A DNA stretch of 64,000 nucleotides. Origin: Thermobifida cellulosilytica TB100. GTDB taxonomy: Bacteria; Actinomycetota; Actinomycetes; Streptosporangiales; Streptosporangiaceae. Location of the stretch: the NCBI RefSeq assembly GCF_001517975.1, contig NZ_KQ950184.1:169029-233028 (forward strand), given 5' to 3'. Under the pieces are notes generated by a model. That model saw only the letters and a program-made list of their open reading frames with translations, was not told the DNA's origin and made no database searches. The stretch's first letter is position 1, and each line of letters begins with the position of its first letter. Shown here piece after piece: positions 30,757 through 51,246 of this stretch. The position numbers were made by a program, and so were the translations under genes.

Positions 30757-30760
30757 CCCG

Positions 30761-31396
30761 ATGGCGCGGATCGGGGCGGCCGCGGCCGGGCTGCTGCTCG
30801 CCTTCACGGCCCTGGCGCTCCTCCTGGCCGCGGGGACGGGCCGGTCCCCCGTCCACGGGTGGGACGCCGTCCTCACCGGAGCGGTCGCCGACACGCGGTC
30901 CCCCTTCGCGACCGGAGCGGCGCTGCTGCTCCACCACGTCGGGGCGTGGCCGTGGGGGAGCGTCCTGGTGGTCGGGCTGCTGCTGCCGCTGGTGCTGCTG
31001 CGCCGCTGGATCTCGGCCCTGCTGGTCGCGCTCGCCTGGGCCGCCACCTTCCTGGCCGCGGTCCCCCTGGCCAAGGACGTGGTCGGCCGCGGCCGCCCCG
31101 CGCAGGGCCTGGTCGTCGAGGACTCGGCGGCCTACCCGTCCGGGCACACCGCGTTCGCCGCGGCGCTGGCCGTCGCCGCGGCGGCCGTCAGCCCGCCGCG
31201 GGCGCGGATCCCCGTGCTGCTGGCCGGGGCCGCGTTCACCGCGGTGATGGCCTGGAGCCGGATGTACCTGGGAGTGCACTGGTTCTTCGACACGGTCGGG
31301 GGAGCGCTGCTGGGCGCCGGACTCGGACTGCTGGTCTGGTGGCTGCTCCACCCGCTGCTCCCGCGCCCCGTCACCGGAGGGGAGAGGCGGGACTAG
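30761..31396 (+). CDS. PAP2-family membrane phosphatase
   Basis: 211 residues with six predicted membrane helices. The three phosphatase motifs are KDVVGRGRP (KxxxxxxRP), YPSGHTAF (PSGH) and SRMYLGVHWFFD (SRxxxxxHxxxD). Family members dephosphorylate lipid substrates such as phosphatidate, phosphatidylglycerophosphate or undecaprenyl diphosphate on the outer membrane face. It starts four bases after the SpoIIE gene and is 9 bases from rarA, so it is probably co-transcribed with both. Confidence 0.9.
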   Translation: MARIGAAAAGLLLAFTALALLLAAGTGRSPVHGWDAVLTGAVADTRSPFATGAALLLHHVGAWPWGSVLVVGLLLPLVLLRRWISALLVALAWAATFLAAVPLAKDVVGRGRPAQGLVVEDSAAYPSGHTAFAAALAVAAAAVSPPRARIPVLLAGAAFTAVMAWSRMYLGVHWFFDTVGGALLGAGLGLLVWWLLHPLLPRPVTGGERRD

Positions 31397-31405: not shown

Positions 31406-32731
31406 GTGTCCGAAACGCTGTTCGACGACGCCGGAGCCGAAGCCCACCGCTCCGAGGAGCCGCTGGCGGTGCGGATGCGCCCCCGCACCCTCGACGAGGT
31501 GGTCGGCCAGCGGCACCTGCTGGGGGAGGGGAGCCCGCTGCGCAGGCTCGTCGAGGACGACGCGCCCATGTCGCTGCTGCTGTGGGGGCCGCCCGGAACC
31601 GGCAAGACCACGCTGGCCACCGTGGTCAGCAGGGCCACCCGCAGGCGCTTCGTGGAGCTGTCGGCGGTCACCTCCGGCGTCAAGGACATCCGCGCGGTGG
31701 TCGACGAGGCCCGCCGCGAACTCGGCATGCGCGGCGTGCGCACCCTGCTCTTCGTCGACGAGGTCCACCGCTTCAGCAAGACCCAGCAGGACGCCCTGCT
31801 GCCCTCGGTGGAGAACCGCTGGGTCAGCTTCATCGGCGCCACCACCGAGAACCCGTTCTTCTCGGTCATCAGCCCGCTGCTGTCCCGCTCGCTGCTGCTC
31901 ACCCTGGAGTCGCACACCGACGACGACATCCGCACTGTCCTGGAACGGGCCCTGGTCGACGAACGCGGCCTCGCCGGCCGCTACACCCTGGCCGCCGACG
32001 CCGCCGACCACCTGGTACGGCTCGCCGGGGGAGACGCCCGGCGCTCGCTGACCTACCTGGAGGCCGCCGCACTGGTCGCGGGGGAGCGCACCGAGATCAC
32101 CGTGACCGACGTCGAGCGCGCGGCCGACCGCACCGCGGTGCGCTACGACCGCTCCGGCGACCAGCACTACGACGTGGTCAGCGCGTTCATCAAGAGCATG
32201 CGCGGCAGCGACGTCGACGCGGCCCTGCATTACCTGGCCCGCATGATCGAGGCGGGGGAGGACCCGCGGTTCATCGCCCGCCGCATCGTGGTGCACGCCA
32301 GCGAGGACGTGGGCATGGCCGACCCCACCGCACTGCAGGTCGCGGTCGCCGCCGCCCAGGCCGTCGAACTGGTCGGCCTGCCCGAGGCGCGCATCAACCT
32401 CGCCCAGGCGGTCATCCACATCGCGCTCGCACCCAAGTCCAACGCGGTGGTCACCGCCATCGACCGGGCCGTCGGCGACGTGCGCGCCGGGCGGCTCGGC
32501 GCGGTCCCCGCCCACCTGCGCGACAGCCACTACCGGGGCGCCGCCGACCTCGGCCACGGTGTGGGCTACCGCTACCCGCACGACCATCCGGGCGGGGTGG
32601 TGGCCCAGCGGCACCTGCCCGAAGGGCTGGAGAACGCCGAGTACTACCGGCCCACCACCCACGGCGCCGAGCGCCGCTTCGGCGAGGTGCTGCGGCGGAT
32701 CAGGGGAGTGCTGCGCGGCGGCTCCGACTGA
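31406..32731 (+). CDS. rarA: Replication-associated recombination AAA ATPase RarA/MgsA
   Basis: 441 residues. AAA+ core: [17 protein letters not shown], Walker [12 protein letters not shown], Walker [16 protein letters not shown], sensor 1 [12 protein letters not shown], and the C-terminal tetramerisation domain ([31 protein letters not shown]). It acts at stalled replication forks and gaps. GTG start. In Streptomyces the gene lies close to rpsD and alaS; here the large accessory block begins downstream. Confidence 0.94.
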
Positions 32732-33293: not shown

Positions 33294-34364
33294 ATGACCG
33301 AGTACGCCACCGGAACGGTGCAGGAGGACGGCCGCTACCGCTACTCCTTCCGCGCCGACAGCAGCGGCGGCAGTGGACGGGCCGAGGTTCTCATCGAAAC
33401 GGTCGACCCGCAGCTCACCGAAGAGCTGGCCGCCGAGGCGGCCCTGGCAGCAGAGGCCACCGGCGCGGTCATGGACGGGACCGGAGGAAGGTTCCCGCGC
33501 ACCCTGGCCGAGTACGTCGAGGCGGGAACCGGCGCCAACAGCTCCCGGAGCACGCTCGTGCTGCGCGTGCCCAGGGGGAGGGGCCAGCTCCTCTACCTGG
33601 AACCGGCGATCCAGGACAACCCCCGCCTCCTGCCGGTCACCCCCAAGGTCGTCCGCAAGATCGCCGTCGACGTGTACGAGGCGCTCGCCGTCCTGCACAG
33701 CGTCGGCTACGCCCACGGCGCCGTGAACACCTCCAGCCTGCTGTGGAACCGGCGCGAGGCGGTGCTCGCCCGCTACCACCGCGTCATCAGCGACCCCGAC
33801 GGACGGCGAAGCAGCATCGACGTGGCCGACGCGGCCCGCCTGCTCTACCACGTCGCCACCGGACGGCCGCTGAGCGGCGAGCTGACCCACAGCGCCCACC
33901 GGGAGCTGAACAGCCGAGTGTCCGGCCTGGGCGACCTCGTCGCCGCCGCCCTGGACCCGCCCGACCGGCGGATCAGCGCCGCCGAGGCCCGGGACCGGGC
34001 CCGCCAACTGGTCCCGGTGGAGGAGAACGCACAGAGCGACGCGGCCTCCGCGCCCCGACGAGAGGACACCCCGGAGGAGGCCGCGGCACGGCGGGAGTTC
34101 CGGGAGCTCAGGGTCGAGCAGCAGGACGCCCGCCGCAGACGCCACCCTCCCGAGCCTCTCCCCGAGCCGCGCTGGCCCACGCCCGACCCGGGCCTCCTGA
34201 AGCCCCGGTCGCCGTGGCGGGTGCTGCTGGACGAGGGGGTCGGACCCGCCGCGCGCCAACTGCTCGACCGCGCCGGCGGACCGGCGACCCGGCCCCTGGC
34301 CGTCGGGACGGCAGCCGTGCTGCTGGTGATCATCCTCGGGGTACTGCTGGGAAGGATGCTGTGA
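33294..34364 (+). CDS. Tail-anchored pseudokinase-like protein
   Basis: 356 residues. Residues about 115-240 read like a protein-kinase C-lobe: VVRKIAVDVYEALAVLHSVG, then HGAVNTSSLLWN in place of the catalytic HRDxKxxN loop (the aspartate is lost), and DVADAARLLYHVATGRPL matching the alpha-F helix. No glycine-rich loop, lysine or DFG is evident, so it should be inactive. A charged, Arg-rich linker (245-330) leads to a single C-terminal membrane helix (AVGTAAVLLVIILGVLLG) with three residues after it, so the bulk is cytoplasmic. The stop overlaps the next ATG (TGATG). First gene of the five-gene operon. Role inferred: membrane scaffold or signal receiver. Confidence 0.7.
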   Translation: MTEYATGTVQEDGRYRYSFRADSSGGSGRAEVLIETVDPQLTEELAAEAALAAEATGAVMDGTGGRFPRTLAEYVEAGTGANSSRSTLVLRVPRGRGQLLYLEPAIQDNPRLLPVTPKVVRKIAVDVYEALAVLHSVGYAHGAVNTSSLLWNRREAVLARYHRVISDPDGRRSSIDVADAARLLYHVATGRPLSGELTHSAHRELNSRVSGLGDLVAAALDPPDRRISAAEARDRARQLVPVEENAQSDAASAPRREDTPEEAAARREFRELRVEQQDARRRRHPPEPLPEPRWPTPDPGLLKPRSPWRVLLDEGVGPAARQLLDRAGGPATRPLAVGTAAVLLVIILGVLLGRML

Positions 34365-35785
34365 TGAGCCGACCGGTGGACCTGCCGCCGACGGTGGACT
34401 GTCCGTACTGCCTCGCACGGATCGACACCTCGCGCGCCAGAAGCGTCATCCGCGACATCGCCACCCAGGAGGTGAAAGGCGACGTCACCGACGTCGTCCG
34501 GCAGCACGGACTCATCGGTGTCGCCCCCTACAACCGCGGCAACACCTACCTGGAGTGCACCCGCAGGGTGCGCCTCGACCCCACGTCGGCGACAGGCTAC
34601 GGTGCCGGCCTCCTGGACGAGCCCACCACCGTCGTCGTGGGCGGCTCCGGGGACGGCGAGCCCACGACCGCCTTCACCGGCGGCATCGACTTCGACGACC
34701 CGGACGACGAACCCACCGGGTCCCCCCTCTCACTGGACGACGACGTCGACGGGGAGGACGACGGGGACGGCTGGGAGAGCTCCACCGGCACCCAGCCCCG
34801 CCCTGTCCTGCCGACCCAGACCGACGAGAACGAACTGCCCGACCCGCACTACCTCCCCTACGAGTACTGCCAGATACGGCGCACCCTCAACATCGGACTC
34901 ATCGGAACCACCCGCTCCGGCAAGTCGCACCTGCTCGCGGCGATGCTGTACCGGCTGCGGGAGGAGGAGAGGCGGCTCGCCCGGCTCGGCGTGCACGTGG
35001 AACCCTTCGCCGAGATGTGGGAACACTACATGCAGCGCGAGGACATCGCCGGCTTCCTCGCCCCCGACCGGCGCACCGCCCTGCGCCGCACCAACCGGAC
35101 CGACCCGGTCGAGTTCCGCATGGCCTACACGGTCACCAGCACCTGGAACGGCGAGCCGACCGACTGCGTGGTGAGCTTCTTCGACGTGGCCGGAGAGCTC
35201 TTCCTCGACGCCAAGGCGCGCCGCCGCCTCCAGTTCATCTACGGCCTGGACGCCTACATCTTCGTCGCGGACAGCCAGGCGCTGTACGGCTGGGACGGCA
35301 AGCGCCGCGGCCTGCTCCACCGGTCGGGGTTCGACGAAGTCATCAACCAGATCCTCCAGAACGAGCGTCACATGGCGCACGCCACGAAGCAGAGACGGGA
35401 GACCTTCCTTCCCAAGCCCGCGGTGGTGGTCCTCGCCAAGGCCGACCTCCTGCTCGCCCAGAACGAGTACTGGACCAGCAGGTGGCTGGAGCGCGACGAC
35501 GACTTCGAACTGGAGACGGTCGACGAGGAGAGCGAGGACGTCTACGTCTACTGCGCGACCAACGGGGCCAGGGAATGGCTGAAGCCGGTCAGCGCGTTCG
35601 AGGACGCCACCCTCCACTTCACCTCGGCCACCGGCTGCGAGGAGCGGGACGGGCACTACAACAAGCGGAAGTTCCGCCACATGCGCGTCCTGCGCCCCCT
35701 GCTGGCCCTGTTCGCCATGACGGGAATCATCGACCCGAAGACGATCAACCACGCCTACGTGCCAGGCGTGCGCGACCCGAGGTGA
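34364..35785 (+). CDS. Zinc-ribbon plus P-loop GTPase, resembling double-GTPase/TRAFAC-type conflict-system GTPases
   Basis: 473 residues. CPYC at 13-16 and another Cys near 65 suggest a degenerate zinc ribbon. An acidic, disordered linker spans about 100-160. The GTPase domain begins LNIGLIGTTRSGKSHLLAAML (P-loop GTTRSGKS, 181-188); FFDVAGE at 272-278 is the DxxG position and VVLAKADLLL near 355-364 replaces NKxD. The layout matches what has been described computationally as DO-GTPase2-like proteins in actinobacterial conflict systems; I assign this from memory of the motif pattern. It lies between a pseudokinase and a GAP1-like protein, which fits that assignment. Start ATG overlaps the previous stop. 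Confidence 0.75.
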   Translation: MSRPVDLPPTVDCPYCLARIDTSRARSVIRDIATQEVKGDVTDVVRQHGLIGVAPYNRGNTYLECTRRVRLDPTSATGYGAGLLDEPTTVVVGGSGDGEPTTAFTGGIDFDDPDDEPTGSPLSLDDDVDGEDDGDGWESSTGTQPRPVLPTQTDENELPDPHYLPYEYCQIRRTLNIGLIGTTRSGKSHLLAAMLYRLREEERRLARLGVHVEPFAEMWEHYMQREDIAGFLAPDRRTALRRTNRTDPVEFRMAYTVTSTWNGEPTDCVVSFFDVAGELFLDAKARRRLQFIYGLDAYIFVADSQALYGWDGKRRGLLHRSGFDEVINQILQNERHMAHATKQRRETFLPKPAVVVLAKADLLLAQNEYWTSRWLERDDDFELETVDEESEDVYVYCATNGAREWLKPVSAFEDATLHFTSATGCEERDGHYNKRKFRHMRVLRPLLALFAMTGIIDPKTINHAYVPGVRDPR

Positions 35786-35796
35786 AAGGGGACGGG

Positions 35797-38619
35797 GTGA
35801 GCACGACCCGCGCAGAGCGGGACACGCGCGTCCACCAGGTGGTGTTCCGGTGGACCGACCAGCACCTGCTGGGCGGACGCGGCATAGGCCCGGTGGGAAC
35901 GTCGCTGCCGGAGCAGCGGGACCTGGCCCGGTGGAGCGACCTGTTGGACAACGGGGACCTGGTCGGGCCGATGCACCCCGACCGGCCCGCGGTGGGGCTG
36001 CTGCGGCCGCGGTCCCGTTCCGGCCTGGCCGTGATCGTCCGCGCCGACGCGGTGCCCACCTCGTCCCGGGGCTCCCACCAGGTCCACGCCCTGGTGGGGG
36101 CGGCCGACGTGCTGACCGCACGGCTCGCCCTCGGCCTGCGGGACTGGACGGGATGGCTGCCCCCCGAGGACGGCCCGCTGCCCGACCCGCAACTGGAGGC
36201 GCTCGACGCCGCCGCCCTGGAGGCCGCGTGCGCGCGGCCCGGCAGCGCCGACCCGGGCGAGGTCGCGGCGCTGCTGCGGCACGTGCTGCACCACCCCGAC
36301 TACCACTTCCACTTCGCCGGGGCGGCCAGCGACCCCTACGCCCTGGGGCACGCGCTGGCGAGCCTGCTGGACGTCTCCCTGATGGTGGAGGGCGACGTGC
36401 AGGCGGTCACGGCCCAGCCGCGGATCGCGGTCACCGTGGAGAAGACCCACCTGCGCATCCCGCCCTCGCACTGGTACCGCAAGTCCCCCGCCAGCCGCGC
36501 ACCGCTGGAGGAGTGGGCCGAGGACATCGCCTACCTGGTGGAACGGGAGCTCGCCGCCCCGCGGACCACCCCGCGCAGCCCCCGGGAACTCCTGCGGAGC
36601 CTGTCCGACCTGCACTACCAGAAAGAGGGCCTGTACTGGGCCCTCAGCCACGCGCTCCAGGGAAACGCCAAGGTCCGCCGCTACCTGACCCAGGAGGACG
36701 GCCTGCACTGGGCACGGCAGGAGTTCGCCGCCCTGACCCCCGACGAGCTGGAGAAGCTCTGCCGGGCCTGGGGCGGCTGGCCCAACGCGCCCGGACAGCT
36801 CACCGAGGAGCTGAGAGGCAGGGTGGCCGCCCTGTCCCTGGACTGGCAGGACGATCCCGCCCTCGACAGCCTGCGCGACGCGGGCCGCCAGGTGTTCCGC
36901 CCGGCCCCCGGGGCCTCCACGGAGGAGCGCCGCGAACAGCTCCGACCGGTGGTCGAACGGATCCACCACCTGTGGCGCGACCGGCACAGGCGCTTCCTCA
37001 CGGACTGCGAGGTGCTGCTGTGGCACGCCCACCAGCTCGCCCACCTGTCCTCCGACGAGGTCCACAGCCTCCTCAAGGTCCTGGAGGTCCCCGCAGCGGA
37101 CCTGGTCGTGATCGCCCACCACTACACCGGGGACGCCGGGGCACGGGAGTTCCGTCGCGGAGTGCTGGAAGCGCTGCAGCAGGCCCCGACCACCCTGCAG
37201 GACCGCCCGAAGACACGCGAGGAGTTGCGGGGGAGCGACTTCCTGCTGGACACGTTGGCCGAGGTGACACCGGAACGACGGCGGGCGCTCTTCGCCCGTC
37301 TGCTGGAGCTCGGCTACGGCCCGTCCCAGGAGGTCCGGGACGACCTTCAGACCTCCGAGAAGCTGGGCAGGGACCTGGTCTCCGTCTCCGGGCACCGGGT
37401 GTTTCCCTCCCTGCTCCCGGTGGCGGCCCGCCACCTCCACACTGCGGCGCGCTTGGGAGTGTGGCGCGAGCTGCGGAGCGCCCTGACCAGCAGGGAGACC
37501 ACCCCGCTGCTCGACGGCGCGCTCGCCTACCTGGTGGACCAGCTCATCGGTGCCCAGAACCTGGACTTCTTCCGCGAGGCCCTGCGCTTGCTCGTCGACC
37601 TGCGGCGCGCCGACGCGCTGCCGCTGCGCGAGCTCCAGCAGAAGCTCCGCAAGCACGACTACTTCCAGGAGAAGCTGCACGGCTTCGGCGGCAAGGACCG
37701 CTACGGCGCGGTGGGCAGGGAGATCATCCTCGCCTTCGCGGACCTGATGTGGCTGGCCAGCGGGGAGGTGCCCCCGCTGGACCACAGCCGCCCCCTGCCC
37801 GAGAAGAAGGTGCAGGAACTGGAACGGGCGGAGCGGTACCGCGACCCCGCCTACTTCCGGCTGGCGCTGATCCGCGTCTCCCGTACCGCCTCGGCCCGCA
37901 CCCCGGCCTCCGAACGCCTGTGGAGCGATTTCCCCCCCGAAGTGGTGGAGAGTTTCCGGGACCGCCCCGAACTCCTCCGGCTGATCGGGGAACCCCCCAG
38001 GAACAGGGACGACCACGCCCGGATCTGGGAGGTGGGGCCGCGGAGCTCGCAAAGAAGCACTGGAGCGAAGGGCGAGCCGCCCTCGCGCGTCCTGTCCTAC
38101 CGCAGGGGCGCAGCCGAGGTGGACCGGGACTCGGACTACGACAAGGAGTTGTTCGAGGACGAGGAGCCCGCGGCTGCCGCGTCCCTCCGGCCGCTGGGAA
38201 CCGGCGGCACCGGCTCCGCGGACGCCGCATTCACTGACGATGCGTGGGACCCCGAGGACGAACCGCTCTGGGAACAGGGGGCGAAGCTCCGCACGGCCGA
38301 GGACACCGCATCCGCCGACGACGAGCGGGAGGACGAGCCCACACCGTTCTGGAAACGGGTGACGGGGCGCTGGAAGCGCCGGAAGACCGAGGACACCGCC
38401 GAGGCCGACCCGCAATACAGCGATTGGAGACCCTGGCTGGCAACCTTGGCTGTCTTGGCGATAATCGCCGCCGTCGCCGCTCTGATCCTCTACTTCAGTG
38501 CCCGGCTTCTCGACAGCCCGGCGAACGGCGGCCCCACTCCGGACCGGCCCGGTGCCGCCACCCCGACGCAGAGCCACGCCCCCTCCCCGTCGCCTTCAAC
38601 TGAGGAGACTTCCAGGTGA
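35797..38619 (+). CDS. Large GTPase-associated protein 1 (GAP1)-like protein, C-terminally membrane anchored
   Basis: 940 residues from the GTG at 35797 (AAAGGGG five bases upstream). The N-terminus HQVVFRWTDQHLLGGRGIGP and HQVHALVGAADVLTARLALGL resemble the GAP1 N-terminal domain found beside GTPases in predicted conflict systems. The middle (about 250-700) is alpha-helical and repeat-like. The segment 740-870 is acidic and low in complexity. A single membrane helix (WLATLAVLAIIAAVAALILYF) lies near residue 885, followed by a Pro/Ser-rich tail outside. It is 11 bases after the GTPase gene, and its stop overlaps the next gene's GTG. An open frame continues upstream to 34555 but runs through the GTPase gene. 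Confidence 0.7.
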   Translation: MSTTRAERDTRVHQVVFRWTDQHLLGGRGIGPVGTSLPEQRDLARWSDLLDNGDLVGPMHPDRPAVGLLRPRSRSGLAVIVRADAVPTSSRGSHQVHALVGAADVLTARLALGLRDWTGWLPPEDGPLPDPQLEALDAAALEAACARPGSADPGEVAALLRHVLHHPDYHFHFAGAASDPYALGHALASLLDVSLMVEGDVQAVTAQPRIAVTVEKTHLRIPPSHWYRKSPASRAPLEEWAEDIAYLVERELAAPRTTPRSPRELLRSLSDLHYQKEGLYWALSHALQGNAKVRRYLTQEDGLHWARQEFAALTPDELEKLCRAWGGWPNAPGQLTEELRGRVAALSLDWQDDPALDSLRDAGRQVFRPAPGASTEERREQLRPVVERIHHLWRDRHRRFLTDCEVLLWHAHQLAHLSSDEVHSLLKVLEVPAADLVVIAHHYTGDAGAREFRRGVLEALQQAPTTLQDRPKTREELRGSDFLLDTLAEVTPERRRALFARLLELGYGPSQEVRDDLQTSEKLGRDLVSVSGHRVFPSLLPVAARHLHTAARLGVWRELRSALTSRETTPLLDGALAYLVDQLIGAQNLDFFREALRLLVDLRRADALPLRELQQKLRKHDYFQEKLHGFGGKDRYGAVGREIILAFADLMWLASGEVPPLDHSRPLPEKKVQELERAERYRDPAYFRLALIRVSRTASARTPASERLWSDFPPEVVESFRDRPELLRLIGEPPRNRDDHARIWEVGPRSSQRSTGAKGEPPSRVLSYRRGAAEVDRDSDYDKELFEDEEPAAAASLRPLGTGGTGSADAAFTDDAWDPEDEPLWEQGAKLRTAEDTASADDEREDEPTPFWKRVTGRWKRRKTEDTAEADPQYSDWRPWLATLAVLAIIAAVAALILYFSARLLDSPANGGPTPDRPGAATPTQSHAPSPSPSTEETSR

Positions 38620-39830
38620 GCACCCCGACCAGCAGTGCCCACGACCTGGCCGACATCGCCGAACAGCTCGACCGCCACGCCCGCACCGCCCCTCCGGCGG
38701 GCGCGCAGGTGCTGCGCTCGCTCGCGCGCAGCCTGGCCGACGGCGGAGCGGACCTGGCCGCCACCGACCTGGCCGCCGCCTACCCGCCCGACTCCCTGAT
38801 GCCCGACCTCCCGCCGCCGCGCTGGATGAGCCTGCTGCTGTGGCTGCTGCGCGGGGCCCGCGACGTCCTCATCTTCCTCCCGGTGTTCTGGACCTGGTAC
38901 CAGCTCATGCAGGTGCTGTCCGCCTTCGGCGACGCCCCCGAGGGAGCCAACTTCCTCTACGGCTGGCAGCAGGGCGGCTTCACCGGCACCGGCCAGTTCG
39001 AGCCGCTCAGCACCACCGCGTCCTGGGTCTGCGTCTTCCTGCTCGGCGTCATCGGCGCGACCCTCCTCGTCCACGTCCTGGAGGGGGTGACCGGCGCGCT
39101 CAGCGACCGCAGCCGCCGGCGCGAGCACATCGCCCAACTGCTGGCTCTGGCCACCTACCTGATCCCCGACCGCCCCGACTCGGTGCGCGCGGAGGTCCGC
39201 GGCGCCACCGAGACCCTGCAGGGGATCCGCCGGGCGATGGCCGGCATGGAGAACGCGCTGAGCGCCGCCACCGACAGCATGCACGGGGCCGCGGCCGACA
39301 TGCGCCAGGCGGCCGACGGCATCGCCGAGGCGCTCGCCGGAGACCCCCGGGAGCAGCTCATCCGGGCACTGGACGAGTGGCAGACCCGGATGGGGCAGCT
39401 CGCCGACGCCGTCCGCGAGGCCCGCACCCCCGCCGAGCTCCTCGACAGCCTCACCGGACTCACCCGCAGCGCCGTCGAGGGCCAGGAGCGGTTCAGCGAG
39501 CAGACCCGCCGCATCCTGGAGCTGCTCAAGGAGCAGAGCGAGCTCGTGGAGCGGCACACCGCCGAGTCCGCGCGGTTCGCGACGGACACCATGGACCGCG
39601 TCACCGCCGCCCTGGAGAAGCTGGAGAAGGTCTCCGATGAGCTGGCCGCGGCCCAGGACAGGCTCGGCGCCTTCACCGAGCAGTCCAGCAACACCCTGCG
39701 GCAGGCGCTCGACGAGTTCACCGACCTCGCCGACGACCTCGGCTTCCTCGTCAAGGACGTGCAGCGCGCCGCGGCCCGGCACCGGGACGAGGAGACGTCG
39801 GGCGGACGCGAGGAGGACCCGTGGTCCTGA
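38616..39830 (+). CDS. Two-TM membrane protein with long cytoplasmic coiled coil (ZorA/MotA-like candidate)
   Basis: 404 residues. Membrane segments at about 71-102 (WMSLLLWLLRGARDVLIFLP…) and 134-160 (TASWVCVFLLGVIGATLLVHV) enclose an extracytoplasmic loop of about 30 residues. From 165 to 390 the protein is a heptad-rich helix with many Ala/Glu/Arg/Leu (ILELLKEQSELVERHTAES, LEKLEKVSDELAAAQDRL). This membrane-core-plus-long-tail plan recalls ZorA and other MotA/ExbB relatives, which have three or four helices, so it may be a reduced or unrelated form. Its immediate partner is MotB-like, which is the main support. GTG start overlaps the GAP1-like stop; its end overlaps the next gene by 10 bases. 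Confidence 0.62.
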   Translation: MSTPTSSAHDLADIAEQLDRHARTAPPAGAQVLRSLARSLADGGADLAATDLAAAYPPDSLMPDLPPPRWMSLLLWLLRGARDVLIFLPVFWTWYQLMQVLSAFGDAPEGANFLYGWQQGGFTGTGQFEPLSTTASWVCVFLLGVIGATLLVHVLEGVTGALSDRSRRREHIAQLLALATYLIPDRPDSVRAEVRGATETLQGIRRAMAGMENALSAATDSMHGAAADMRQAADGIAEALAGDPREQLIRALDEWQTRMGQLADAVREARTPAELLDSLTGLTRSAVEGQERFSEQTRRILELLKEQSELVERHTAESARFATDTMDRVTAALEKLEKVSDELAAAQDRLGAFTEQSSNTLRQALDEFTDLADDLGFLVKDVQRAAARHRDEETSGGREEDPWS

Positions 39831-40354
39831 CCAGGCGCCGCGGACGCACCGGCGGACGGGTCCCGGCCATCCACCTGGCGGGCTGGCTCTTCGCCGACCT
39901 GCTCCTGGTGCTGTTCCTCGTCTCGCTCAGCGCACAGCACGCCCCCGAGGCCCCCGAACCCCCGCCGCCGCCCCCGCCGAAACTGCTGAGCCCCGAATCC
40001 TGCGAGTTCACCGTCCGGCTGGGCAACGGGTTCACCGCGGACCGGGACCGGGTCGTCTCCGAGCTGGAACGCATCCTGTCCGCCCCGAAGGACAGCGACT
40101 TCAACACCGACGACGGCCACGGCGCACCCAGCGACAAGTGCCGCGAGCACCTGGCCGAGCAGCGGGACGTCGGCTTCGTCATCGCCTTCGGCAGTGGCAG
40201 CAACCAGCAGATAGGGGCGGCCAAGGAGTTCGCCGCCGACGTCGCCGAGATCGCGATCGAGGAGATCCCCCAGTTCAAGGACGCCAAGTACCGCGAGCTG
40301 TGGACCGGCGGCAGCCCCGGGTCGGTCGAGCTCTCCGTGTTCTTCCTGGAGTGA
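39821..40354 (+). CDS. MotB/ZorB-like one-TM protein with divergent OmpA-like domain
   Basis: 177 residues. A basic N-terminus is followed by one helix AGWLFADLLLVLFLVSLS with an aspartate (residue 26) early in the membrane, the place of the proton-carrying Asp of MotB, ExbD and ZorB. A poly-Pro linker (about 47-53) follows, then an external domain whose end, VGFVIAFGSGSNQQIGAAKEFA … GSVELSVFF, has the order of an OmpA-type peptidoglycan-binding fold without its classical motif. GTG at 39821 with AGGAGG upstream, inside the preceding gene. Last gene of the operon; ends in a 42-bp palindrome. Assignment to the MotB class is by topology and motif, not by alignment. Confidence 0.65.
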   Translation: MVLTRRRGRTGGRVPAIHLAGWLFADLLLVLFLVSLSAQHAPEAPEPPPPPPPKLLSPESCEFTVRLGNGFTADRDRVVSELERILSAPKDSDFNTDDGHGAPSDKCREHLAEQRDVGFVIAFGSGSNQQIGAAKEFAADVAEIAIEEIPQFKDAKYRELWTGGSPGSVELSVFFLE

Positions 40355-40389
40355 GGTGGTCCGCCGCGCGCGGCGGACCACCTCACTCC
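40348..40389. terminator. Perfect 42-bp palindrome shared by two convergent stop codons
   Basis: 40348-40368 is the exact reverse complement of 40369-40389, a 21-bp stem without loop. It contains the stop codon of the MotB-like gene (40352-40354) and that of the kinase gene on the other strand (40383-40385). Best read as a compact bidirectional terminator. Confidence 0.8.
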
Positions 40390-42041
40390 CGCCCGGCGGC
40401 CTCGGCGAACCGCCGGGCCGTGTCCGCGGCGACCGAGGCGATGACCACCCAGGCCAGCCCGCGGGCCGTGTCGGGGTCGGCGCGCACCACCGCCTCCTGC
40501 TGGCTGGTCCACCAGCGGGTGGGACAGCGCAGCGCCAGCACCGCCGCGCGGTGCCGGTCGAGTTCGGCGCTGCGCCGCCGCACCAGCAGCGCCGTCGCGT
40601 ACACCCGGTCGGTCAGTTCCCGGTCCGGGGGCAGCAGGATCTGCGGGTGCCCCAGCGTGTCGTGCTCGGCCCAGATCTGGTGGCGCAGTTCGCGCAGCGG
40701 CTCCCTGGTGCGGTCCACGACCTCGGCGACCTGGGAGCGGAGCCGCCGCAGCACCCGGCAGCCCCGCCCGAGGTGCTTGCCCACGCACAGGCCGTGCCGG
40801 CAGACGTGCCGGGCCGCGTACCTCTCGACGATCACGCTGCGCTCCCCGAGGAGGCGGCGCAGCAGGGCCTGCTCCTGCGCCCCGCCGGAGGCCAGCGCCA
40901 CCAGCCCGTCCTCGTCCACGGGGTGGCCCCGGTAGCGGGGCCGCTCGTGCGGGGCGAGCCGCAGGGCGATCTCCGCGAGGGCCTCCTCCAGCTCGGACAG
41001 CTCCAGGTACTCCTCCTCTGCGACCCGGCGCACCAGGTCGCGCAGGCCGCGGTCGGTGAGCCCGAGGCGCCGCGCCTCGCCGAGGAGGCGCTCCCGGTTG
41101 CGGCGCAGCCAGGGCACCGGGTTGCCGTGGTGCTGCTGCATCTCCAGGACCAGCAGGGTCGCCGCGTCTCCCGCTTTCCGGGAGGGGCGGTCCCGGGGCG
41201 CGGCGGCAGACCGGGGGGAGCCGAGCGCGTCGAGCTCCTTCAGCAACTGCTCCGCGGTGGGGCGCTTCTTGGGATCCTTGTCCATCGCCCGCACCGCCAG
41301 GTCCGCCAGCGGCCCGCGCAGGCCGTGCAGCTCGGGCGGGGAGTGCAGCACCCGGTTCATGACCTCCTCGGGTGAGGAGGCGGTGAACGGCAGCCGTCCG
41401 GTCGCGGCGAACACCACCACGCAGCCCCAGGCGAAGACGTCCGAGGGCGGTTCGGACACGCCCCGGTACCGTTCCGGGCTCATCGTGCCCGCCGTGCCGA
41501 TCGGCGGCGCCCCGGTCCCGGTGAGCCCTTGGGCGTCCGCCGCCCGCGCGATGCCGAAGTCCAGCACGACCGGTGTGCCGTCGGGGCGGACCATGACGTT
41601 GGAGGGCTTGAGGTCGCGGTGGACGACACCGGCCCGGTGGATGGCGCACAGTGCGGCGGCCACCCCCCGGGCCAGCAGGAGCAGGCGCCGACCGGACAGC
41701 TTCCCGCACCGCTGCAGGGTGCGTCCCGGCACGTAGTCGGTGACCAGCCAGGGGTGCCCGTCGGAGACGCCGGAGTCCAGCAGCGGGACCACGTGCTCGC
41801 TGCGCAGCCGCTGCAGCGCCCGGACCTCCTCCTGGAAGCGCCGGTGCCGGTGGTCGACGTCCGGGGGCATCCCGGAGCGCATGAGCTTCACCGCCACGGG
41901 GCGCCCCCGGGAGTCCAGGGCGGCGTAGACGACGCCCATGCCCCCCGTGCCCAGGCGGCCGACCAGCCGGTAGCCGGGAATGCGGACGGCGTGGTCGCCG
42001 GGGCGCAGGGGGGACAGGTCGGGCGGAAAACCGTGGGGCAT
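40383..42041 (-). CDS. Serine/threonine protein kinase with a long uncharacterised C-terminal region
   Basis: 552 residues. The kinase domain (about 22-290) is complete: glycine loop GRLGTGGMGVVYA (28-40), VAVK (Lys52), HRDLKPSN (141-148), DFGIA (161-165), GTAGTMSPERYRG activation/APE region, and DVFAWGCVVVFAATGRLPF. No membrane helix or PASTA repeats are seen. Residues 310-552 are helical and Arg/Leu-rich, with CRHGLCVGKHLGRGC in the middle, a possible metal site. The ATG at 42041 fits the family. It lies 113 bases downstream of the second kinase-like gene on the same strand. Likely a cytosolic kinase serving the neighbouring system. Confidence 0.88.
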   Translation of the reverse strand: MPHGFPPDLSPLRPGDHAVRIPGYRLVGRLGTGGMGVVYAALDSRGRPVAVKLMRSGMPPDVDHRHRRFQEEVRALQRLRSEHVVPLLDSGVSDGHPWLVTDYVPGRTLQRCGKLSGRRLLLLARGVAAALCAIHRAGVVHRDLKPSNVMVRPDGTPVVLDFGIARAADAQGLTGTGAPPIGTAGTMSPERYRGVSEPPSDVFAWGCVVVFAATGRLPFTASSPEEVMNRVLHSPPELHGLRGPLADLAVRAMDKDPKKRPTAEQLLKELDALGSPRSAAAPRDRPSRKAGDAATLLVLEMQQHHGNPVPWLRRNRERLLGEARRLGLTDRGLRDLVRRVAEEEYLELSELEEALAEIALRLAPHERPRYRGHPVDEDGLVALASGGAQEQALLRRLLGERSVIVERYAARHVCRHGLCVGKHLGRGCRVLRRLRSQVAEVVDRTREPLRELRHQIWAEHDTLGHPQILLPPDRELTDRVYATALLVRRRSAELDRHRAAVLALRCPTRWWTSQQEAVVRADPDTARGLAWVVIASVAADTARRFAEAAGRE

Positions 42042-42154
42042 GGGCGTTCCTGGTTCCGGGGGGATGCTCCGTCGTCGATTATCGACTCTCGGACCGCTCC
42101 GTACTGCGGTTTCCCCGAAACCGGAAGGGGGCGCGACCGGCGCGCCCCCCACAC

Positions 42155-44041
42155 TCAGCCCGCGGGCGGGTACAACTCCGTGACCGCCGTGATCACGGGC
42201 AGGCCGGTCTCGGGGTCGCGGTCGCCGAAGGTCACCTCGGCGATGACCACGTCTCCCCAGCTCAGGTAGTTGGCCAGGTCGCGTCCGGTGACCTTGTAGG
42301 TGCCCCGCCCGTCCTCGTCGACGAACACCTGGTCGGGGTTGAGACAGAAGTGCGCGCACATCACCTCGGCGTCGCTGGAGATCAGTGCCTCCAGCGGCTG
42401 GTCCGCCCCCTCGACCGGGGTCCACCGCTCGCTCCAGTCCTGCGGGGTGAGCTCGCTGCCGTTCTGCCCGGCGAACGCGTCGTCGCCGGACGCGGGCTCC
42501 ACCGGGGTGTAGGGCCACGGCCCGGACAGCAGGTTGACCTCGCTGGAGCTGTCGAGGCGCACCACGAGGGTGCCGGAGTCCCACTCGGGCGGCGGGGCGG
42601 CCTCCGGGGTCTCCTCGCCTCCGGACGCGGGCTGCGCGGAGTTCTGCTGGGGGGCGGGGGAGTCGCCGCCGAGCAGGGAGACTGCTCCCCAGACGACACC
42701 GCCCACCAGGAGCAGGGCCGCGGCGCCGCCGCCCGCCAGCAGCAGGAGCCGCTTGTTCGACCCGCCCGAGCCCGACGGTCCGCCGGAGGACTGCGCGGGA
42801 ACCGCGGCGGGTTTTTCGACCGGGGCGGGGGGCGCTTCGGCGACGGCGGTGGACGTCGCGAAGGTGGCGGTGGTCGAGGCCGCTTCGGCAGAGGCCGCGG
42901 CAGGCTTCTCGGCCGCAGCGGCGGGTTTTTCGGTCGGCACGGCACCGGCGTCCGAGCCGGAGGACCCCGCGCCCTGTGCCTTGGCCGGAGCGGCCTCCGG
43001 AGCCGTCTGTTGCAGCGACGAGAGCACCGGCACGGGCATGGTGAGGGACGACAGCCGTCCGCCCTTCTTGCCCTTGGGACGGCCGCCCACGTGGACCACC
43101 CGCGGCAGCAGCGCCGGTTCCACGATGCCCTGCCACTCCCGGTGCAGCACCCGGGTGACCCCGGAGCCCCGGCCGGCGTCGCTGCCGACCGACCCCAGAC
43201 CGGTCTCCCACAGTTCGATGGAGGAGCGCACCAGGCTGCGCACGTCGGGCCGCTCCCCGGGGTCGGCTGCCAGCGCCGACTCCAGCAGCGGGCGGATCTC
43301 GTCGGCGACACCGTCGAGATCGGGCTGCTGCTCGCCGATCCGCCCGGCGACCTCCTCGGGGGTCCCGGTGCCGAACGGCGGACGCCCGGTCCCGGCGAAG
43401 GCGAGGACGGCGCCCCAGGAGAACACGTCGGAGGCCGGGGTGGGGGCCTCGCCGCGCAGCCGCTCCGGGCTCAGCCACGGGGCCGACCCGGGCGGCACCG
43501 CCGTCTCCCCGGACAGGGCGCAGTCCAGGATGCGCGGCCCCTGGGAGCTCAGCAGCACGCTGCCGGGCTTGAGGTCGCCGTGCACCAGGTCCAGGGAGTG
43601 CAGCGCCGACAGCCCCTCGCCCAGCCCGGCGGCCAGGGCGGTGAGCCGCCCCAGGGTCATGGGGCCGCGCTGCCTGGTGTACTGCTCCAGCGGGGTTCCG
43701 GGAGCGTAGCGCGTCGCCAGCCACGCGGGCGTGCTGCGGACGTCGAACGCCACGGGCGGCACGTAGCAGCGCCCGTCCACGGCACCCAGGACACGCAGTC
43801 GCTGCTCCAGCCGGGCGCGAGCGGCCTCGTCCGGGACGAGGGCGGGCGGAACGACCTTGACCGCCAGCAGTACGTCCGGTTCGACGTCCGGATGCACCGC
43901 GGCGTAGACACTGCCCGCACCCGTCGAACCGAGCCGACCCACCAGCACGTACGGGCCGATGGAGCTGGGATCCTCCGGCGTGGTGGGGGCCAGGTCAGGG
44001 GGGACCAGAACGGAAACCGTTCGTTCGGAACGTCGACTCAT
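42155..44041 (-). CDS. Membrane-spanning kinase-like protein with degraded catalytic motifs (probable pseudokinase)
   Basis: 628 residues. The kinase fold spans about 28-290: VGRLGSTGAGSVYAA (weak glycine loop), LLAVKVV (Lys62 kept), HGDLKPGSVLL at 154-164 (Arg lost, Asn replaced by Ser) and LDCAL at 172-176 in place of DFG. Loss of the Asn and of the DFG aspartate context argues against normal phosphotransfer. An Ala/Pro/Glu-rich linker (330-425) precedes a membrane helix (LLLLAGGGAAALLLVGGVVWGAV). An external domain of about 170 residues with two close cysteines (MCAHFCLNPDQVFVDEDG) follows. It probably senses something outside the cell. Transcribed toward the active kinase gene. Confidence 0.8.
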   Translation of the reverse strand: MSRRSERTVSVLVPPDLAPTTPEDPSSIGPYVLVGRLGSTGAGSVYAAVHPDVEPDVLLAVKVVPPALVPDEAARARLEQRLRVLGAVDGRCYVPPVAFDVRSTPAWLATRYAPGTPLEQYTRQRGPMTLGRLTALAAGLGEGLSALHSLDLVHGDLKPGSVLLSSQGPRILDCALSGETAVPPGSAPWLSPERLRGEAPTPASDVFSWGAVLAFAGTGRPPFGTGTPEEVAGRIGEQQPDLDGVADEIRPLLESALAADPGERPDVRSLVRSSIELWETGLGSVGSDAGRGSGVTRVLHREWQGIVEPALLPRVVHVGGRPKGKKGGRLSSLTMPVPVLSSLQQTAPEAAPAKAQGAGSSGSDAGAVPTEKPAAAAEKPAAASAEAASTTATFATSTAVAEAPPAPVEKPAAVPAQSSGGPSGSGGSNKRLLLLAGGGAAALLLVGGVVWGAVSLLGGDSPAPQQNSAQPASGGEETPEAAPPPEWDSGTLVVRLDSSSEVNLLSGPWPYTPVEPASGDDAFAGQNGSELTPQDWSERWTPVEGADQPLEALISSDAEVMCAHFCLNPDQVFVDEDGRGTYKVTGRDLANYLSWGDVVIAEVTFGDRDPETGLPVITAVTELYPPAG

Positions 44042-44544
44042 CGTGGTCCTGTCTCAAAAAATTCGAGGTGGAGTGCTGGAACGCGCAGTAGTGGGAAACG
44101 CGCAGTGGTCGGCAGTAGTAGCCGGTCGGTAGTTGTCGCCATTATCGGGAGAACTCGGTCATCTTGTCAGACCGAGACGCTTCTATCCTCTTCCCTGTCG
44201 CCCTCCGATCGAATGCGCCACTCCGTGTTGCCAAATCTCTACGTAAAGTGTCTGTCCTGTGAGATTGGTGCGTGAATCGGGGAAAGGTCCGGACTGCGGG
44301 GCCGCCCCGGCGGCGGGGTGACCGGCCACAGCGGGCGGACCGGACCGGGGAAACGGCGGGAAAGCGCCGCCGGAGGTCCCGTGGGGAACAGGAGAACCGC
44401 GATAGTGTCAGACCCAATCCGGTTCTTCCTGAGGTGGCGGCCCGACCCCCTGGGCAGCCCGGCCGCCGATCGAAGGCCGTCCTGCGCCGACCTCCGCGTC
44501 GGCTGCCCGAAACTCCAATGATCCCAAGTGTTAGCGGAGTCCGC
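44042..44544. other. Divergent intergenic region with a direct repeat upstream of the pseudokinase
   Basis: About 500 bases. AACGCGCAGT occurs twice, at 44080-44089 and 44097-44106, 17 bp apart and 39 bp upstream of the pseudokinase start, a candidate tandem operator. GATAGTGT near 44401 is a possible -10 for the DUF948 gene on the plus strand. The frame open from 44272 toward DUF948 has no ribosome site and is not called. Confidence 0.4.
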
Positions 44545-44937
44545 ATGCTCACCGGAGGAGAACTCGCGGCCCTGGTCGCGGCCGTGGCCTGGGCCGTGGT
44601 GGCCGTGTTCCTGTGCATCGCCCTCATCAAGCTCATCCGCCTGCTGACCGAGGCGACCAGCGCCGTGGCCGAGCTCCGGGCGCGCACCACCCCCCTGCTC
44701 GACGACCTCGCGACCACGGTCGAACGGGCCAACAGCTCGCTCGACCGGGTCGAGGAGATCACCGCCAACCTCGCCAGCAGCAGCGAGGACGTCTCCACGG
44801 TCACCGCGCTCACCCGTTCCGCGGTGACCGGCCCCCTCGTCAAGGTGGCGTCGCTGTCCTACGGGGTGCGCCAGGTCCTGGGACGGCGCAAGACCCTGGC
44901 GCTGATCCGCACCCGGCGCCGGAAGGAGCGCGTGTGA
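44545..44937 (+). CDS. DUF948 family membrane protein
   Basis: 130 residues. An N-terminal membrane helix (LAALVAAVAWAVVAVFLCIALIKLI) is followed by a helical, coiled-coil-like region (LLDDLATTVERANSSLDRVEEIT) and a basic end. DUF948 proteins lie before alaS in many actinobacteria. Function unknown; membrane-associated. The ATG at 44545 has GGAG five bases upstream; ATG 44518 is a weaker alternative. The stop overlaps the GTG of the next gene. Confidence 0.82.
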   Translation: MLTGGELAALVAAVAWAVVAVFLCIALIKLIRLLTEATSAVAELRARTTPLLDDLATTVERANSSLDRVEEITANLASSSEDVSTVTALTRSAVTGPLVKVASLSYGVRQVLGRRKTLALIRTRRRKERV

Positions 44938-45837: not shown

Positions 45838-46689
45838 ATGTCCAAACGGCGGCCGACGCTGCGGGCGCAGTGGCTGGGCAAGATGCTCAAGGAACTTCGG
45901 GAACAGAACGGGCTCAAGCTGACCGACAGTGCCGAGTACCTCCAGCGCAGCTTCTCCGCGATCAGCAAGTTCGAGTCCGGGGCACTGCCCATCCGGGAAC
46001 CGGAGGTGCGCGCCCTGATGGACCTCTACGGAGTGGAGGGGGAGCGCCAGCGCGCCGCGCTGATCCAGTTGTCCCGCGAGGTCAGCAAGACCGGCTGGTG
46101 GGAGAAGTACTCCGACGACATCACCGACTGGTTCGTCGACTACGTGTGGTTGGAGAGCCGGGCCAGGCATATCCGCGCCTACGAGGTGACACCGGTCAAC
46201 GGGCTGTTGCAGACGAGGGAGTATGCGGAAGCATGGATGCGTGCGGTGAATCCCCATGACTCCGCTGCTCAGATCGAGCGGGGCGTCGAGTTGAGAATGG
46301 CACGCCAGAAGATTCTGCGTGGTGAGAAGGCGGTCGAGTTGGAGGTTCTCCTGGACGAGGCAGCTTTGCGCAGGATCGTTGGTGGCCGGGACGTGATGAG
46401 AGAGCAACTCCAACACCTGCTGGTCTGTGGGAAACAGTCCAACATCGAGATTCGAGTCCTTCCTTATTCGGCTGGAGCCCACGCAAGTCCGGACGGAGGT
46501 TTCACCCTGCTCCACTTGGAAGACCCGTTCCCCTTGGTCGCCTACACCGTGGGAGTCGCTGGAGGGGTTTACTTGGAATCACACGAAGCAGAGAGAGTCG
46601 ACGTCCTGTACAACCGTCTTCGAGAGAGCAGTCTGAGTCCAGAGGAGTCGGCCAAGTTGATCGTGGAACTCCAGAAGGAGATGAGATGA
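45838..46689 (+). CDS. XRE-family regulator with DUF5753 domain
   Basis: 283 residues. N-terminal helix-turn-helix (about 12-70, LGKMLKELREQNGLKLTDSA, RSFSAISKFESG) and a C-terminal DUF5753 domain (about 90-275, VNGLLQTREYAEAWMR, QLQHLL…IRVLPYSAGAH, FTLLHLEDP). Such proteins pair with small DUF397 proteins in actinomycetes and often control development or secondary metabolism. TAGAGT near 45769 is a -10 candidate. The stop overlaps the DUF397 ATG. Its location beside the lanthipeptide genes suggests it may regulate them. Confidence 0.9.
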   Translation: MSKRRPTLRAQWLGKMLKELREQNGLKLTDSAEYLQRSFSAISKFESGALPIREPEVRALMDLYGVEGERQRAALIQLSREVSKTGWWEKYSDDITDWFVDYVWLESRARHIRAYEVTPVNGLLQTREYAEAWMRAVNPHDSAAQIERGVELRMARQKILRGEKAVELEVLLDEAALRRIVGGRDVMREQLQHLLVCGKQSNIEIRVLPYSAGAHASPDGGFTLLHLEDPFPLVAYTVGVAGGVYLESHEAERVDVLYNRLRESSLSPEESAKLIVELQKEMR

Positions 46690-46949
46690 ACCAGGACGAC
46701 ACTTTGGTTCTCGACTGGAGAATCAGCAGCTACAGTCCAAGCGGCGGCAAGAGCTGCGTCGAAGTTGGCTGGCACATCAGCAGCTACAGCGCCAACGGCG
46801 GTGGCAGGTGCGTCGAAGCGGGTCCTCTCCTCGACACCCCCGCCCGGGTCGCGGTCCGCGACTCCACGCAGCGCGGTCTCGGGTTCCTCACCTTCCCCGC
46901 CGCCGAGTGGCACGCCTTCCTCCGCGCGGCCACGAGCGGCGCGCTGTAG
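46686..46949 (+). CDS. DUF397 protein with an internal duplication
   Basis: 87 residues. DUF397 proteins carry one W-x-x-SSYS…G…CVE motif, then VAVRDS and a closing F…W…FL. Here the first motif is present twice in tandem (residues 11-27 and 29-45), followed by a single ARVAVRDST…LTFPAAEWHAFL. It is translated with the upstream XRE gene (ATGA overlap). DUF397 proteins are thought to act with their XRE partner. Confidence 0.88.
   Translation: MNQDDTLVLDWRISSYSPSGGKSCVEVGWHISSYSANGGGRCVEAGPLLDTPARVAVRDSTQRGLGFLTFPAAEWHAFLRAATSGAL
46716..46823 (+). repeat. Tandem 54-base duplication inside the DUF397 gene
   Basis: Unit 1 is 46716-46769 and unit 2 is 46770-46823. Both encode W-x-ISSYS-x-x-G-G-x-x-CVE-x-G. 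The two copies have diverged at several bases, so the duplication is not very recent. Confidence 0.8.
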
Positions 46950-51219: not shown

Positions 51220-51246
51220 CGGGAATCCTTTCTCCGGACAGGAACT

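What the first reader, a model, noticed from the sequence alone, without database searches (positions are those of the whole stretch)
33294..44041. Candidate undescribed membrane signalling/defence system: pseudokinase, GTPase, GAP1-like protein, coiled-coil membrane protein and MotB-like protein with two kinase-like partners
Five plus-strand genes are coupled by overlaps or an 11-base gap. In order they encode a tail-anchored pseudokinase, a zinc-ribbon P-loop GTPase, a 940-residue GAP1-like anchored protein, a two-TM coiled-coil protein and a MotB/ZorB-like protein. Two kinase-like genes converge on them. Four of the five operon products are membrane-anchored, so a GTP- and kinase-controlled complex at the membrane is plausible. 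GTPase/GAP1 pairs have been proposed computationally as conflict-system components and Zorya uses a MotAB-like motor. Combining both in one operon is, as far as I know, not described.
Basis: partly seen in the sequence, partly recalled or inferred. Interest (0 to 1): 0.85.

Follow-up and report, generated by a model that had tools for sequence, protein, structure and literature searches.

The report
GTPase-linked motor-like membrane gene cassette
A conserved block of genes in soil bacteria joins a molecular switch to two membrane proteins that resemble a wall-anchored, ion-driven motor, and in several relatives it sits beside, or shares its motor-like pair with, known or predicted virus-defence systems.

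Summary
The five-gene operon is real. It encodes a tail-anchored pseudokinase (A), P-loop GTPase (B), GAP1-like anchored protein (C), two-TM coiled-coil protein (D) and OmpA/MotB-like protein (E). All five lie in one order in 18 of 18 loci with a strong D match (window included, 7 genera, 4 held out). One kinase (F) travels with the cassette; the second (G) does not: it sits between rarA and DUF948 in five relatives lacking the cassette.

E has one membrane helix with an Asp present in 19 of 19 readable rows, then an OmpA-like fold. Its profile's top PDB matches are ExbD, Asp in register, at non-significant E-values. D-E also occurs without the GTPase: of 29 such loci examined, 19 hold vWA and 10 BrxD. 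In four genera the cassette stands head-to-head with an FtsH/ubiquitin-like/caspase conflict system.

Best reading: a GTPase- and kinase-regulated, peptidoglycan-anchored, motor-like defence module; a new variant of DO-GTPase systems, not Zorya. Motor activity, a GTPase-to-motor contact and anti-phage activity are inferred, not shown.

The parts
33294..34364 (+). gene A: tail-anchored pseudokinase (356 aa), C-terminal TM 335-353
   Evidence: (HRD Asp absent in 26 of 26 rows); matching gene upstream of the GTPase in 18 of 18 loci
34364..35785 (+). gene B: DO-GTPase2-like P-loop GTPase (473 aa) with an N-terminal CPYC motif
   Evidence: PF19993 E 2e-4, 21.6 bits, below cut-off 27; the two homologues scanned pass the cut-off (40.9 and 38.6 bits); G1/G3/G4 motifs in 23 of 23 rows
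35797..38619 (+). gene C: GAP1-N2-like protein (940 aa), TM 880-898
   Evidence: no Pfam hit; N-terminal profile matches the gene downstream of the GTPase in tubulin-type operons (hhalign prob 99.8) and remotely canonical GAP1-N2 (score 36.4 against at most 21.5 in 100 shuffles; 32.3 and prob 30 without two tubulin-type rows)
38616..39830 (+). gene D: N-terminal helical domain, two long TM helices (model 69-105 and 131-163), long cytoplasmic helical tail (404 aa)
   Evidence: pLDDT 62; P-x3-T-W motif in TM1 in 24 of 25 readable rows
39821..40354 (+). gene E: one TM with conserved Asp (AGWLFADL), proline-rich linker, OmpA-like domain (177 aa)
   Evidence: (pLDDT 84)
40383..42041 (-). gene F: Ser/Thr kinase with intact Lys, HRD and DFG motifs and a Cys-rich C-terminal region; travels with the cassette
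   Evidence: F-type kinase beside the cassette in 13 of 18 loci, not seen in G111 where the cassette is absent

Best explanation
A-F is a chromosomal conflict (defence) cassette built around a GTPase switch and a wall-anchored, motor-like membrane pair. SHOWN by sequence: A-B-C-D-E is one conserved unit; A is a pseudokinase tethered at the membrane; B keeps its GTP-binding motifs; C is a membrane-tethered, GAP1-like companion of B; F is an intact kinase. SUPPORTED by model and motif: E spans the membrane once, with a conserved Asp where TolR/ExbD/MotB carry their ion-binding Asp, and ends in an OmpA-like (peptidoglycan-binding type) domain; D has two TM helices with a conserved Pro and Thr and a long cytoplasmic helical tail, the layout of a GldL- or ZorA-like partner. 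INFERRED: several D surround an E dimer; envelope damage at phage entry lets E grip peptidoglycan and ions flow; D's tail turns or shifts; pseudokinase A, phosphorylated or released by F, and the B-C pair act as a threshold that gates or reads this movement. Output is cell-suicidal or protective: in four genera probably the neighbouring EAD1-CHAT protease and ubiquitin-like conjugation system, in BREX-like loci the BrxD/BrxHI/PglZ-like set, and in Thermobifida either ion leak through D-E itself or a second, unlinked gene.
For: Order A-B-C-D-E in 18 of 18 loci, 7 genera, with GTPases down to about 31-34% identity to the window's. D and E neighbouring in 28 of 29 further loci without GTPase; 19 of these 29 hold vWA and 10 BrxD, with PP2C, PglZ-like, BrxHI, DrmD and DrmMI-like genes in the locus scanned in full, L105. 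The D tree splits by context with 100/100 support, so D-E is a module used by two system types. E fold: of the nine best VIA rows seven are titled OmpA or OmpA-like (the other two, 3oon and 5jir, are so by recall), MotB and PomB further down. E profile against PDB: 4 of 5 listed matches are ExbD or TolR, Asp on Asp in the ExbD alignments shown; the wider profile gives ExbD as the top 2 of 5. Four cassettes lie head-to-head with E1, Ubl-E2, JAB, fvmX1, EAD1-CHAT, two-domain AAA+, MoxR-like and WD40 proteins (Pfam or PDB match in at least one locus each, the rest by homology), and the only fvmX1 match in each of these four genomes is at that place. Cassette absent as a block from G111, 198-base site.
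Against: No experiment. D shows no match to MotA/ExbB/TolQ families or to their fold (model pLDDT only 62); ZorA hits of D fall in the coiled coil only. E to ExbD/TolR E-values are 0.13-1.4, each non-significant alone, a hormone chain ranks above TolR, and the wider profile lost TolR and gained unrelated chains. OmpA-like Z is at most 7.2, while other rows reach 6.2-6.3, and Foldseek ranks other folds first. The tubulin-type counterpart of C does not match canonical GAP1-N2 (prob 0.5). One locus, L064, has a GTPase piece and a C-like gene but no A, D or E; L039 shows B-C only on a 3.9-kb contig. The window genome has no fvmX1 and the cassette holds no evident effector. Only 4 of 18 loci adjoin an FtsH-ternary system. 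In the PADLOC scan of 73 flanking proteins (14 of 18 loci), 19 of the 20 families listed were E1-E2, presumably the four ThiF genes of those same loci, plus one mad3 match: no general defence-island signal.
Confidence: 0.5

Rival explanations
1. Housekeeping envelope device: D-E and the GTPase-kinase set monitor or move cell-wall machinery in branching actinomycetes and have no role in defence.
For: Wall-anchor type fold of E; chromosomal: B has no match among phage records and one, in an 11.9-Mb Nonomuraea record, among plasmids; D and one BREX-type E have none among plasmids; GAP1-N2 systems are tied to multicellular habit (PMC7159879, passages).
Against: Patchy: 14 of 250 family genomes with GTPase-type D, absent as a block from a same-genus genome; D-E sits in BREX-like loci and beside FtsH-ternary systems.
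Confidence: 0.25
2. Static tether: E anchors a GTPase/pseudokinase signalling complex to peptidoglycan and D is a scaffold; no ions flow.
For: D has no detectable homology to motor A-subunits.
Against: Asp inside the E membrane helix in 19 of 19 readable rows and Pro and Thr inside D TM1 in 24 of 25 readable rows are costly for a mere tether.
Confidence: 0.2
3. D-E is an effector pore: on a GTPase signal it opens and depolarises the membrane, killing the infected cell.
For: Membrane pore effectors (SLATT) are fused to GAP1 in described systems (PMC7159879 passages); no other effector seen in the Thermobifida cassette.
Against: The OmpA-like wall anchor is unneeded for a pore; D-E also accompanies systems with effectors of their own.
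Confidence: 0.2

Closest known systems
GAP1-N2-type DO-GTPase systems (Kaur et al. 2020, PMC7159879; passages read)
   Same: DO-GTPase2-like GTPase followed by a TM-anchored GAP1-like protein; actinobacteria. Tubulin-type operons found here (Tubulin_2 confirmed in L041 only) share pseudokinase A (profile hits in 8 of 8), B, and a C-like gene (profile hits in 3 of 7; prob 99.8 profile to profile).
   Different: No Pfam match to FNIII, tubulin, HSP70, PP2C or vWA in A-F; D-E in their place; C below PF20013 detection.
Zorya ZorAB (PMC11890865; abstract in listing and passages read)
   Same: TM protein with conserved Asp and OmpA-like periplasmic domain plus a partner with a long cytoplasmic helical tail, in defence context.
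   Different: D shows only two TM helices and no MotA/ExbB match; no ZorC, ZorD or ZorE; a GTPase, GAP1-like protein and pseudokinase instead.
TolQR / ExbBD / MotAB / GldLM ion-driven motors
   Same: E membrane-helix Asp in register with ExbD; fold rows include MotB and PomB; two-TM partner as recalled for GldL.
   Different: Homology of D undetected; stoichiometry unknown.
FtsH ternary Ubl-conjugation systems (PMC7159879; passages read)
   Same: Neighbour of the cassette in four genera, with fvmX1, JAB, E1, Ubl-E2, EAD1-CHAT, MoxR-like and AAA+.
   Different: A-E is a separate, divergently read unit, and the window genome lacks fvmX1.

Membership tests
DO-GTPase2 (PF19993) | curated Pfam cut-off, window protein | tested here: not met
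   21.6 bits against 27
DO-GTPase2 (PF19993) | curated cut-off, homologues in cassettes | tested here: met
   L038 first GTPase 40.9 and L036 second GTPase 38.6 bits, the two homologues scanned
DO-GTPase2 (PF19993) | G1, G3, G4 motifs | tested here: met
   23 of 23 rows
GAP1-N2 system | GAP1-N2 domain by PF20013 cut-off | tested here: not met
   no hit in the window C or window genome; best cassette homologue 19.7-21.1 bits against 24
GAP1-N2 system | remote profile similarity of the GAP1 N-terminus | tested here: met
   hhalign score 36.4 (prob 53); 8 decoy families at most 16.9; 100 shuffles at most 21.5; C rows alone 32.3, prob 30
GAP1-N2 system | FNIII-repeat component | tested here: not met
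   no FNIII among A-F in Pfam at E up to 1
Zorya | ZorA MotA/ExbB membrane core | tested here: not met
   no MotA_ExbB hit for D; ZorA matches only in the coiled coil
Zorya | ZorC/ZorD or ZorE effector | tested here: not met
   none among A-G in PADLOC at E up to 1 (for F and G only the best 25 of 34 and 31 families were shown)
5:2 ion-driven motors | ion-carrying Asp in the B-subunit membrane helix | tested here: met
   present in 19 of 19 readable rows of 26; in register with ExbD; that it carries ions is not tested
5:2 ion-driven motors | peptidoglycan-binding OmpA-like domain (MotB/ZorB type) | tested here: inconclusive
   fold supported, Z 7.2 at 94 residues, rmsd 3.1-3.3; binding not tested
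5:2 ion-driven motors | A-subunit homologous to MotA/TolQ | tested here: inconclusive
   no sequence or fold match, low-confidence model
5:2 ion-driven motors | 5:2 assembly and ion flow | not testable with these tools
   needs structure or electrophysiology
FtsH ternary system | fvmX1 in the window genome | tested here: not met
   no match in G000; fvmX1, JAB, E1 and Ubl-E2 found in four related loci

The most novel reading that the evidence does not exclude
D-E is an undescribed, wall-anchored ion-driven motor family that serves as a plug-in infection sensor for at least three different defence architectures (GTPase/pseudokinase, BREX-like, and through the GTPase cassette FtsH/ubiquitin-like/caspase), with GTP hydrolysis and phosphorylation setting the firing threshold.
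Probability: 0.3. Interest if true: 0.92.

Novelty: new variant of a known kind. Interest (0 to 1): 0.74.

Why it matters
If right, it links two ideas kept apart so far: computationally predicted GTPase-GAP1 conflict systems, whose trigger is unknown, and motor-based defence as in Zorya. It gives a testable account of how such systems could sense envelope damage. The same D-E pair in BREX-like loci suggests that wall-anchored sensors may be a general add-on to restriction-like defence in actinomycetes, and the pairing with a caspase/ubiquitin-like system gives a possible route from a membrane signal to programmed cell death.

Tried and rejected
Second kinase G as partner: rejected, it is part of the rarA - G - DUF948 neighbourhood in genomes without the cassette. 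Zorya membership: rejected. Fold search of D against PDB: no meaningful match (model pLDDT 62). Profile of D against PDB sequences: SecY at E 0.3 and one other, taken as chance. Harvest of real ZorA from the phylum for a profile comparison: 4 of 198 genomes, all matches in the C-terminal part of the model, not used. E profile over the phylum: 2 of 396, the window and one weak partial match; only about 8 candidates a genome were scored, so misses are likely. D profile over the phylum: likewise 2 of 396. Plasmid and phage searches: no match for D or for one BREX-type E among plasmids, none for B among phages; B matches one Nonomuraea record among plasmids; D and E were not searched among phages. 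G042: an F/G-like kinase lies next to rarA; whether it is F or G could not be settled. The F profile was trained with that kinase in it, so F hits in L035 are circular. The A to E profiles were likewise trained on part of the first 14 loci; the 4 + 14 loci were not used in them. Rows dropped: L107 and D hits weaker than 1e-9 left out of the tree. Of the weaker D matches only 29 loci were fetched and examined; the rest were not. The site of the four VWA_2 members was not traced. Some D-E pairs have neither vWA nor BREX genes (L110, L117, L156, L157, L159, L164, L165) and their partners are unknown.

No VIA row that is absent is used as evidence.
Full report
WHERE. The window lies in a 4.43-Mb, 19-contig genome. 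A Thermobifida fusca record carries the GTPase at 74% identity, and the held genome with a contig of the same length (G040) is labelled same genus, so the window is taken to be Thermobifida (inference). The region stands between rarA (31406-32731) and DUF948 (44272-44937).

THE OBSERVATION. A has a strong hydrophobic segment at its C-terminus, C one near its C-terminus (and two weak ones), D two, E one near its N-terminus, B none. F converges on E.

WHAT BELONGS. In G111, same genus, searches with B and with D found nothing, and rarA and G are 198 bases apart; the order rarA - G - DUF948 also holds in G010, G018, G006 and G088 (5 of 5 genomes examined without the cassette). G is therefore an old neighbour, and the cassette is A-F, between rarA and G. 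T. fusca carries A-B-C at the end of one contig and D-E-F at the start of another.

LINKAGE. B matches were found in 34 of 150 family genomes. A profile of the D membrane part matches 53 of 250 family genomes, 14 of them at E under 1e-30, and 60 of 297 order genomes, 17 under 1e-30, all in the same family; outside, a phylum draw gave 2 of 396, the window and one weak partial match. Together these are 18 strong genomes in 7 genera. All 18 hold A-B-C-D-E in order: 14 (T. fusca over two contigs) held out. Three architectures exist: Thermobifida (3 loci) with F, plus the G042 locus with a kinase of unsettled kind; one genus (g38, 10 loci) with a second pseudokinase-GTPase pair and convergent F; and four genera (g5, g14, g29, g4) where no F was found but the cassette is head-to-head with another operon (below). 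Against strict linkage: L064 has a GTPase piece and a C-like gene without A, D or E, and L039 shows B-C only on a 3.9-kb contig.

GENES. A: no Asp at the HRD position in 26 of 26 rows, tubulin-type relatives included. B: G1 GxxxxGK[ST], G3 DxxG and G4 [ANTSG]K[AS]D in 23 of 23 rows. F: Lys, HxD and DFG in 9 of 9 rows, one of which is the unsettled G042 kinase. B scores 21.6 bits for DO-GTPase2, under the cut-off 27; both homologues scanned pass (40.9, 38.6). C has no Pfam hit. Its N-terminus matches, at prob 99.8, the gene downstream of the GTPase in tubulin-type operons (Tubulin_2 and vWA confirmed by Pfam in L041; the others judged by gene order and length); a whole-length C profile hits 3 of 7 of these proteins. 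It matches canonical GAP1-N2 of the same family remotely: score 32.3, prob 30 for C rows alone; 36.4, prob 53 with two tubulin-type rows and further C rows added, against at most 16.9 for eight decoy families and 21.5 for 100 column shuffles. The tubulin-type proteins alone do not match canonical GAP1-N2 (prob 0.5). In one search PF20013 rang in 15 of 22 genomes at E up to 1 (11 over the cut-off; 3 of 14 control genomes); of those matches only one fell in a C gene of a cassette, under the cut-off (G028, 21.1 bits).

D AND E. The E model (pLDDT 84) is a membrane helix, a linker and an alpha/beta domain. In the VIA comparison seven of the nine best rows are titled OmpA or OmpA-like (Z 6.4-7.2; 3oon and 5jir are so by recall), MotB and PomB follow at 5.6-6.1, and other rows such as CagT and a dihydroxyacetone kinase reach 6.2-6.3; this supports but does not prove the fold. 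Foldseek alone gave no match under 0.001 and ranked other folds first, OmpA eighth. The helix carries AGWLF[AV]DL with the Asp in 19 of 19 rows whose N-terminus was readable, of 26 rows. The E profile has five PDB matches at E up to 10, four being ExbD or TolR at 0.13-1.4, the fifth a hormone chain at 1.1; the ExbD alignments shown put Asp on Asp. A wider profile of 15 sequences gives ExbD as the top two, 0.53 and 0.78, and three unrelated chains. Each is non-significant alone; I weigh the recurrence and the register. The D model (pLDDT 62) shows an N-terminal helical part, two long membrane helices and a long helical tail; the P-x3-T-W pattern in TM1 holds in 24 of 25 readable rows of 26. D has no known relative by these tools.

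A SECOND LIFE OF D-E. Weaker D hits lie in another setting; 29 loci, a part of them, were fetched. Of 15 first examined, E is beside or near D in 15, vWA in 10, BrxD in 7, DrmD in 6, GTPase in 0. Of 14 held-out loci, D and E were both found in 13 (L157: E only at that threshold; a D-like neighbour shows), vWA with PP2C in 9, BrxD in 3, GTPase in 0. For L105 the set is a DrmMI/type IIG methylase-like protein, DrmD-like helicase, kinase, D, E, vWA, PP2C, PglZ-like, BrxD (E 5e-181) and BrxHI (1029 bits). Seven pairs have neither vWA nor BREX genes and unknown partners (L110, L117, L156, L157, L159, L164, L165). A tree of 25 D rows puts GTPase-type (13) and the other type (12) on two sides of one branch, support 100/100.

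THE NEIGHBOUR IN FOUR GENERA. Among 73 proteins flanking 14 of the 18 cassettes (the Thermobifida and G042 loci were left out), Pfam found ThiF 4, EAD1 4, CHAT 4, VWA_2 4 and fvmYukDl_N 2. By direct scan and homology the ThiF, EAD1 and CHAT genes fall in L037, L040, L048 and L102, divergent from gene A: CHAT (with EAD1 in L102), a Cys-rich small protein (seen in L037, L048 and L102), E1, EAD1-Ubl-E2, JAB-type and fvmX1. Further on come, in L167 (G004), a two-domain AAA+ (PDB best match VCP-like), a RavA-like MoxR and a WD40 protein; homologues of all three recur in 4 of 4 loci. This agrees with the Ubl-type FtsH ternary system of PMC7159879 (passages). fvmX1 was found in 6 of 34 genomes searched; in the four that also carry the cassette the single match is at this place, and two others (G106, G145) have it elsewhere. 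That paper states that core pairs of different systems are not exchanged (passage); here two cores stand side by side. The window genome has no fvmX1.

LITERATURE. Searches (open PMC papers only) listed no paper that I could see joining a DO-GTPase with an OmpA- or MotB-like protein. PMC7159879 was read in passages: no occurrence of MotB, ExbB, TolQ, Zorya or proton in its main text; OmpA once, for iSTAND systems. PMC11890865 was read as abstract in the listing and passages: ZorA5ZorB2, Asp24 of ZorB, peptidoglycan binding and the ZorA tail matter for defence. The other hits were seen in listings only. GldL as a two-TM motor protein is recalled.

MECHANISM AND VERDICT. The conserved unit, the pseudokinase, the GTPase motifs and the D-E module are shown. 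The motor-like reading of D-E is supported by motif and fold but rests on no homology of D. Defence is supported by company kept, not by test. I file it as a new variant of GTPase-centred conflict systems, not as Zorya and not as a canonical GAP1-N2 system.

Noticed in passing
L103, L105, L106, L108, L109, L113, L114, L155, L158, L160: D-E pair in loci with BrxD, usually with vWA, PP2C, PglZ-like and BrxHI and in several DrmD/DrmMI; described in no paper listed by the searches, and perhaps the more striking find.
   Followed up: partly
window 42155-44041 (-): Gene G: kinase-like protein (HGD, DFG changed to DCA in the window) with one TM, fixed between rarA and DUF948 in five further genomes.
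   Followed up: partly
window 45838-52777: Class I lanthipeptide-like cluster: HTH/DUF5753 regulator, LanC-like, LanB-like, PCMT methyltransferase, between DUF6167 and alaS; LanB and LanC not seen in G111 at this place.
   Followed up: no
L041-L047, L050-L054: Operons with a DO-GTPase and, where scanned (L041), Tubulin_2 and vWA genes; they share a pseudokinase like A and, in part, a C-like gene with the cassette.
   Followed up: partly
L104, L111, L112, L154, L161, L162, L163, L166: Compact D-E-vWA-PP2C loci followed by a gene with a weak kinase (Kdo) match in L104, without BREX genes or GTPase in the stretch fetched, possibly a minimal D-E system.
   Followed up: no
L037:1485-3737: Radical-SAM-like genes downstream of E in the G004 locus (judged by eye from sequence), which may be the peptide-processing companion of FtsH ternary systems.
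   Followed up: no
window 28675-31393: PAS/GAF-SpoIIE protein and PAP2 protein upstream of rarA; the SpoIIE gene is next to rarA or one gene away in the relatives examined.
   Followed up: no
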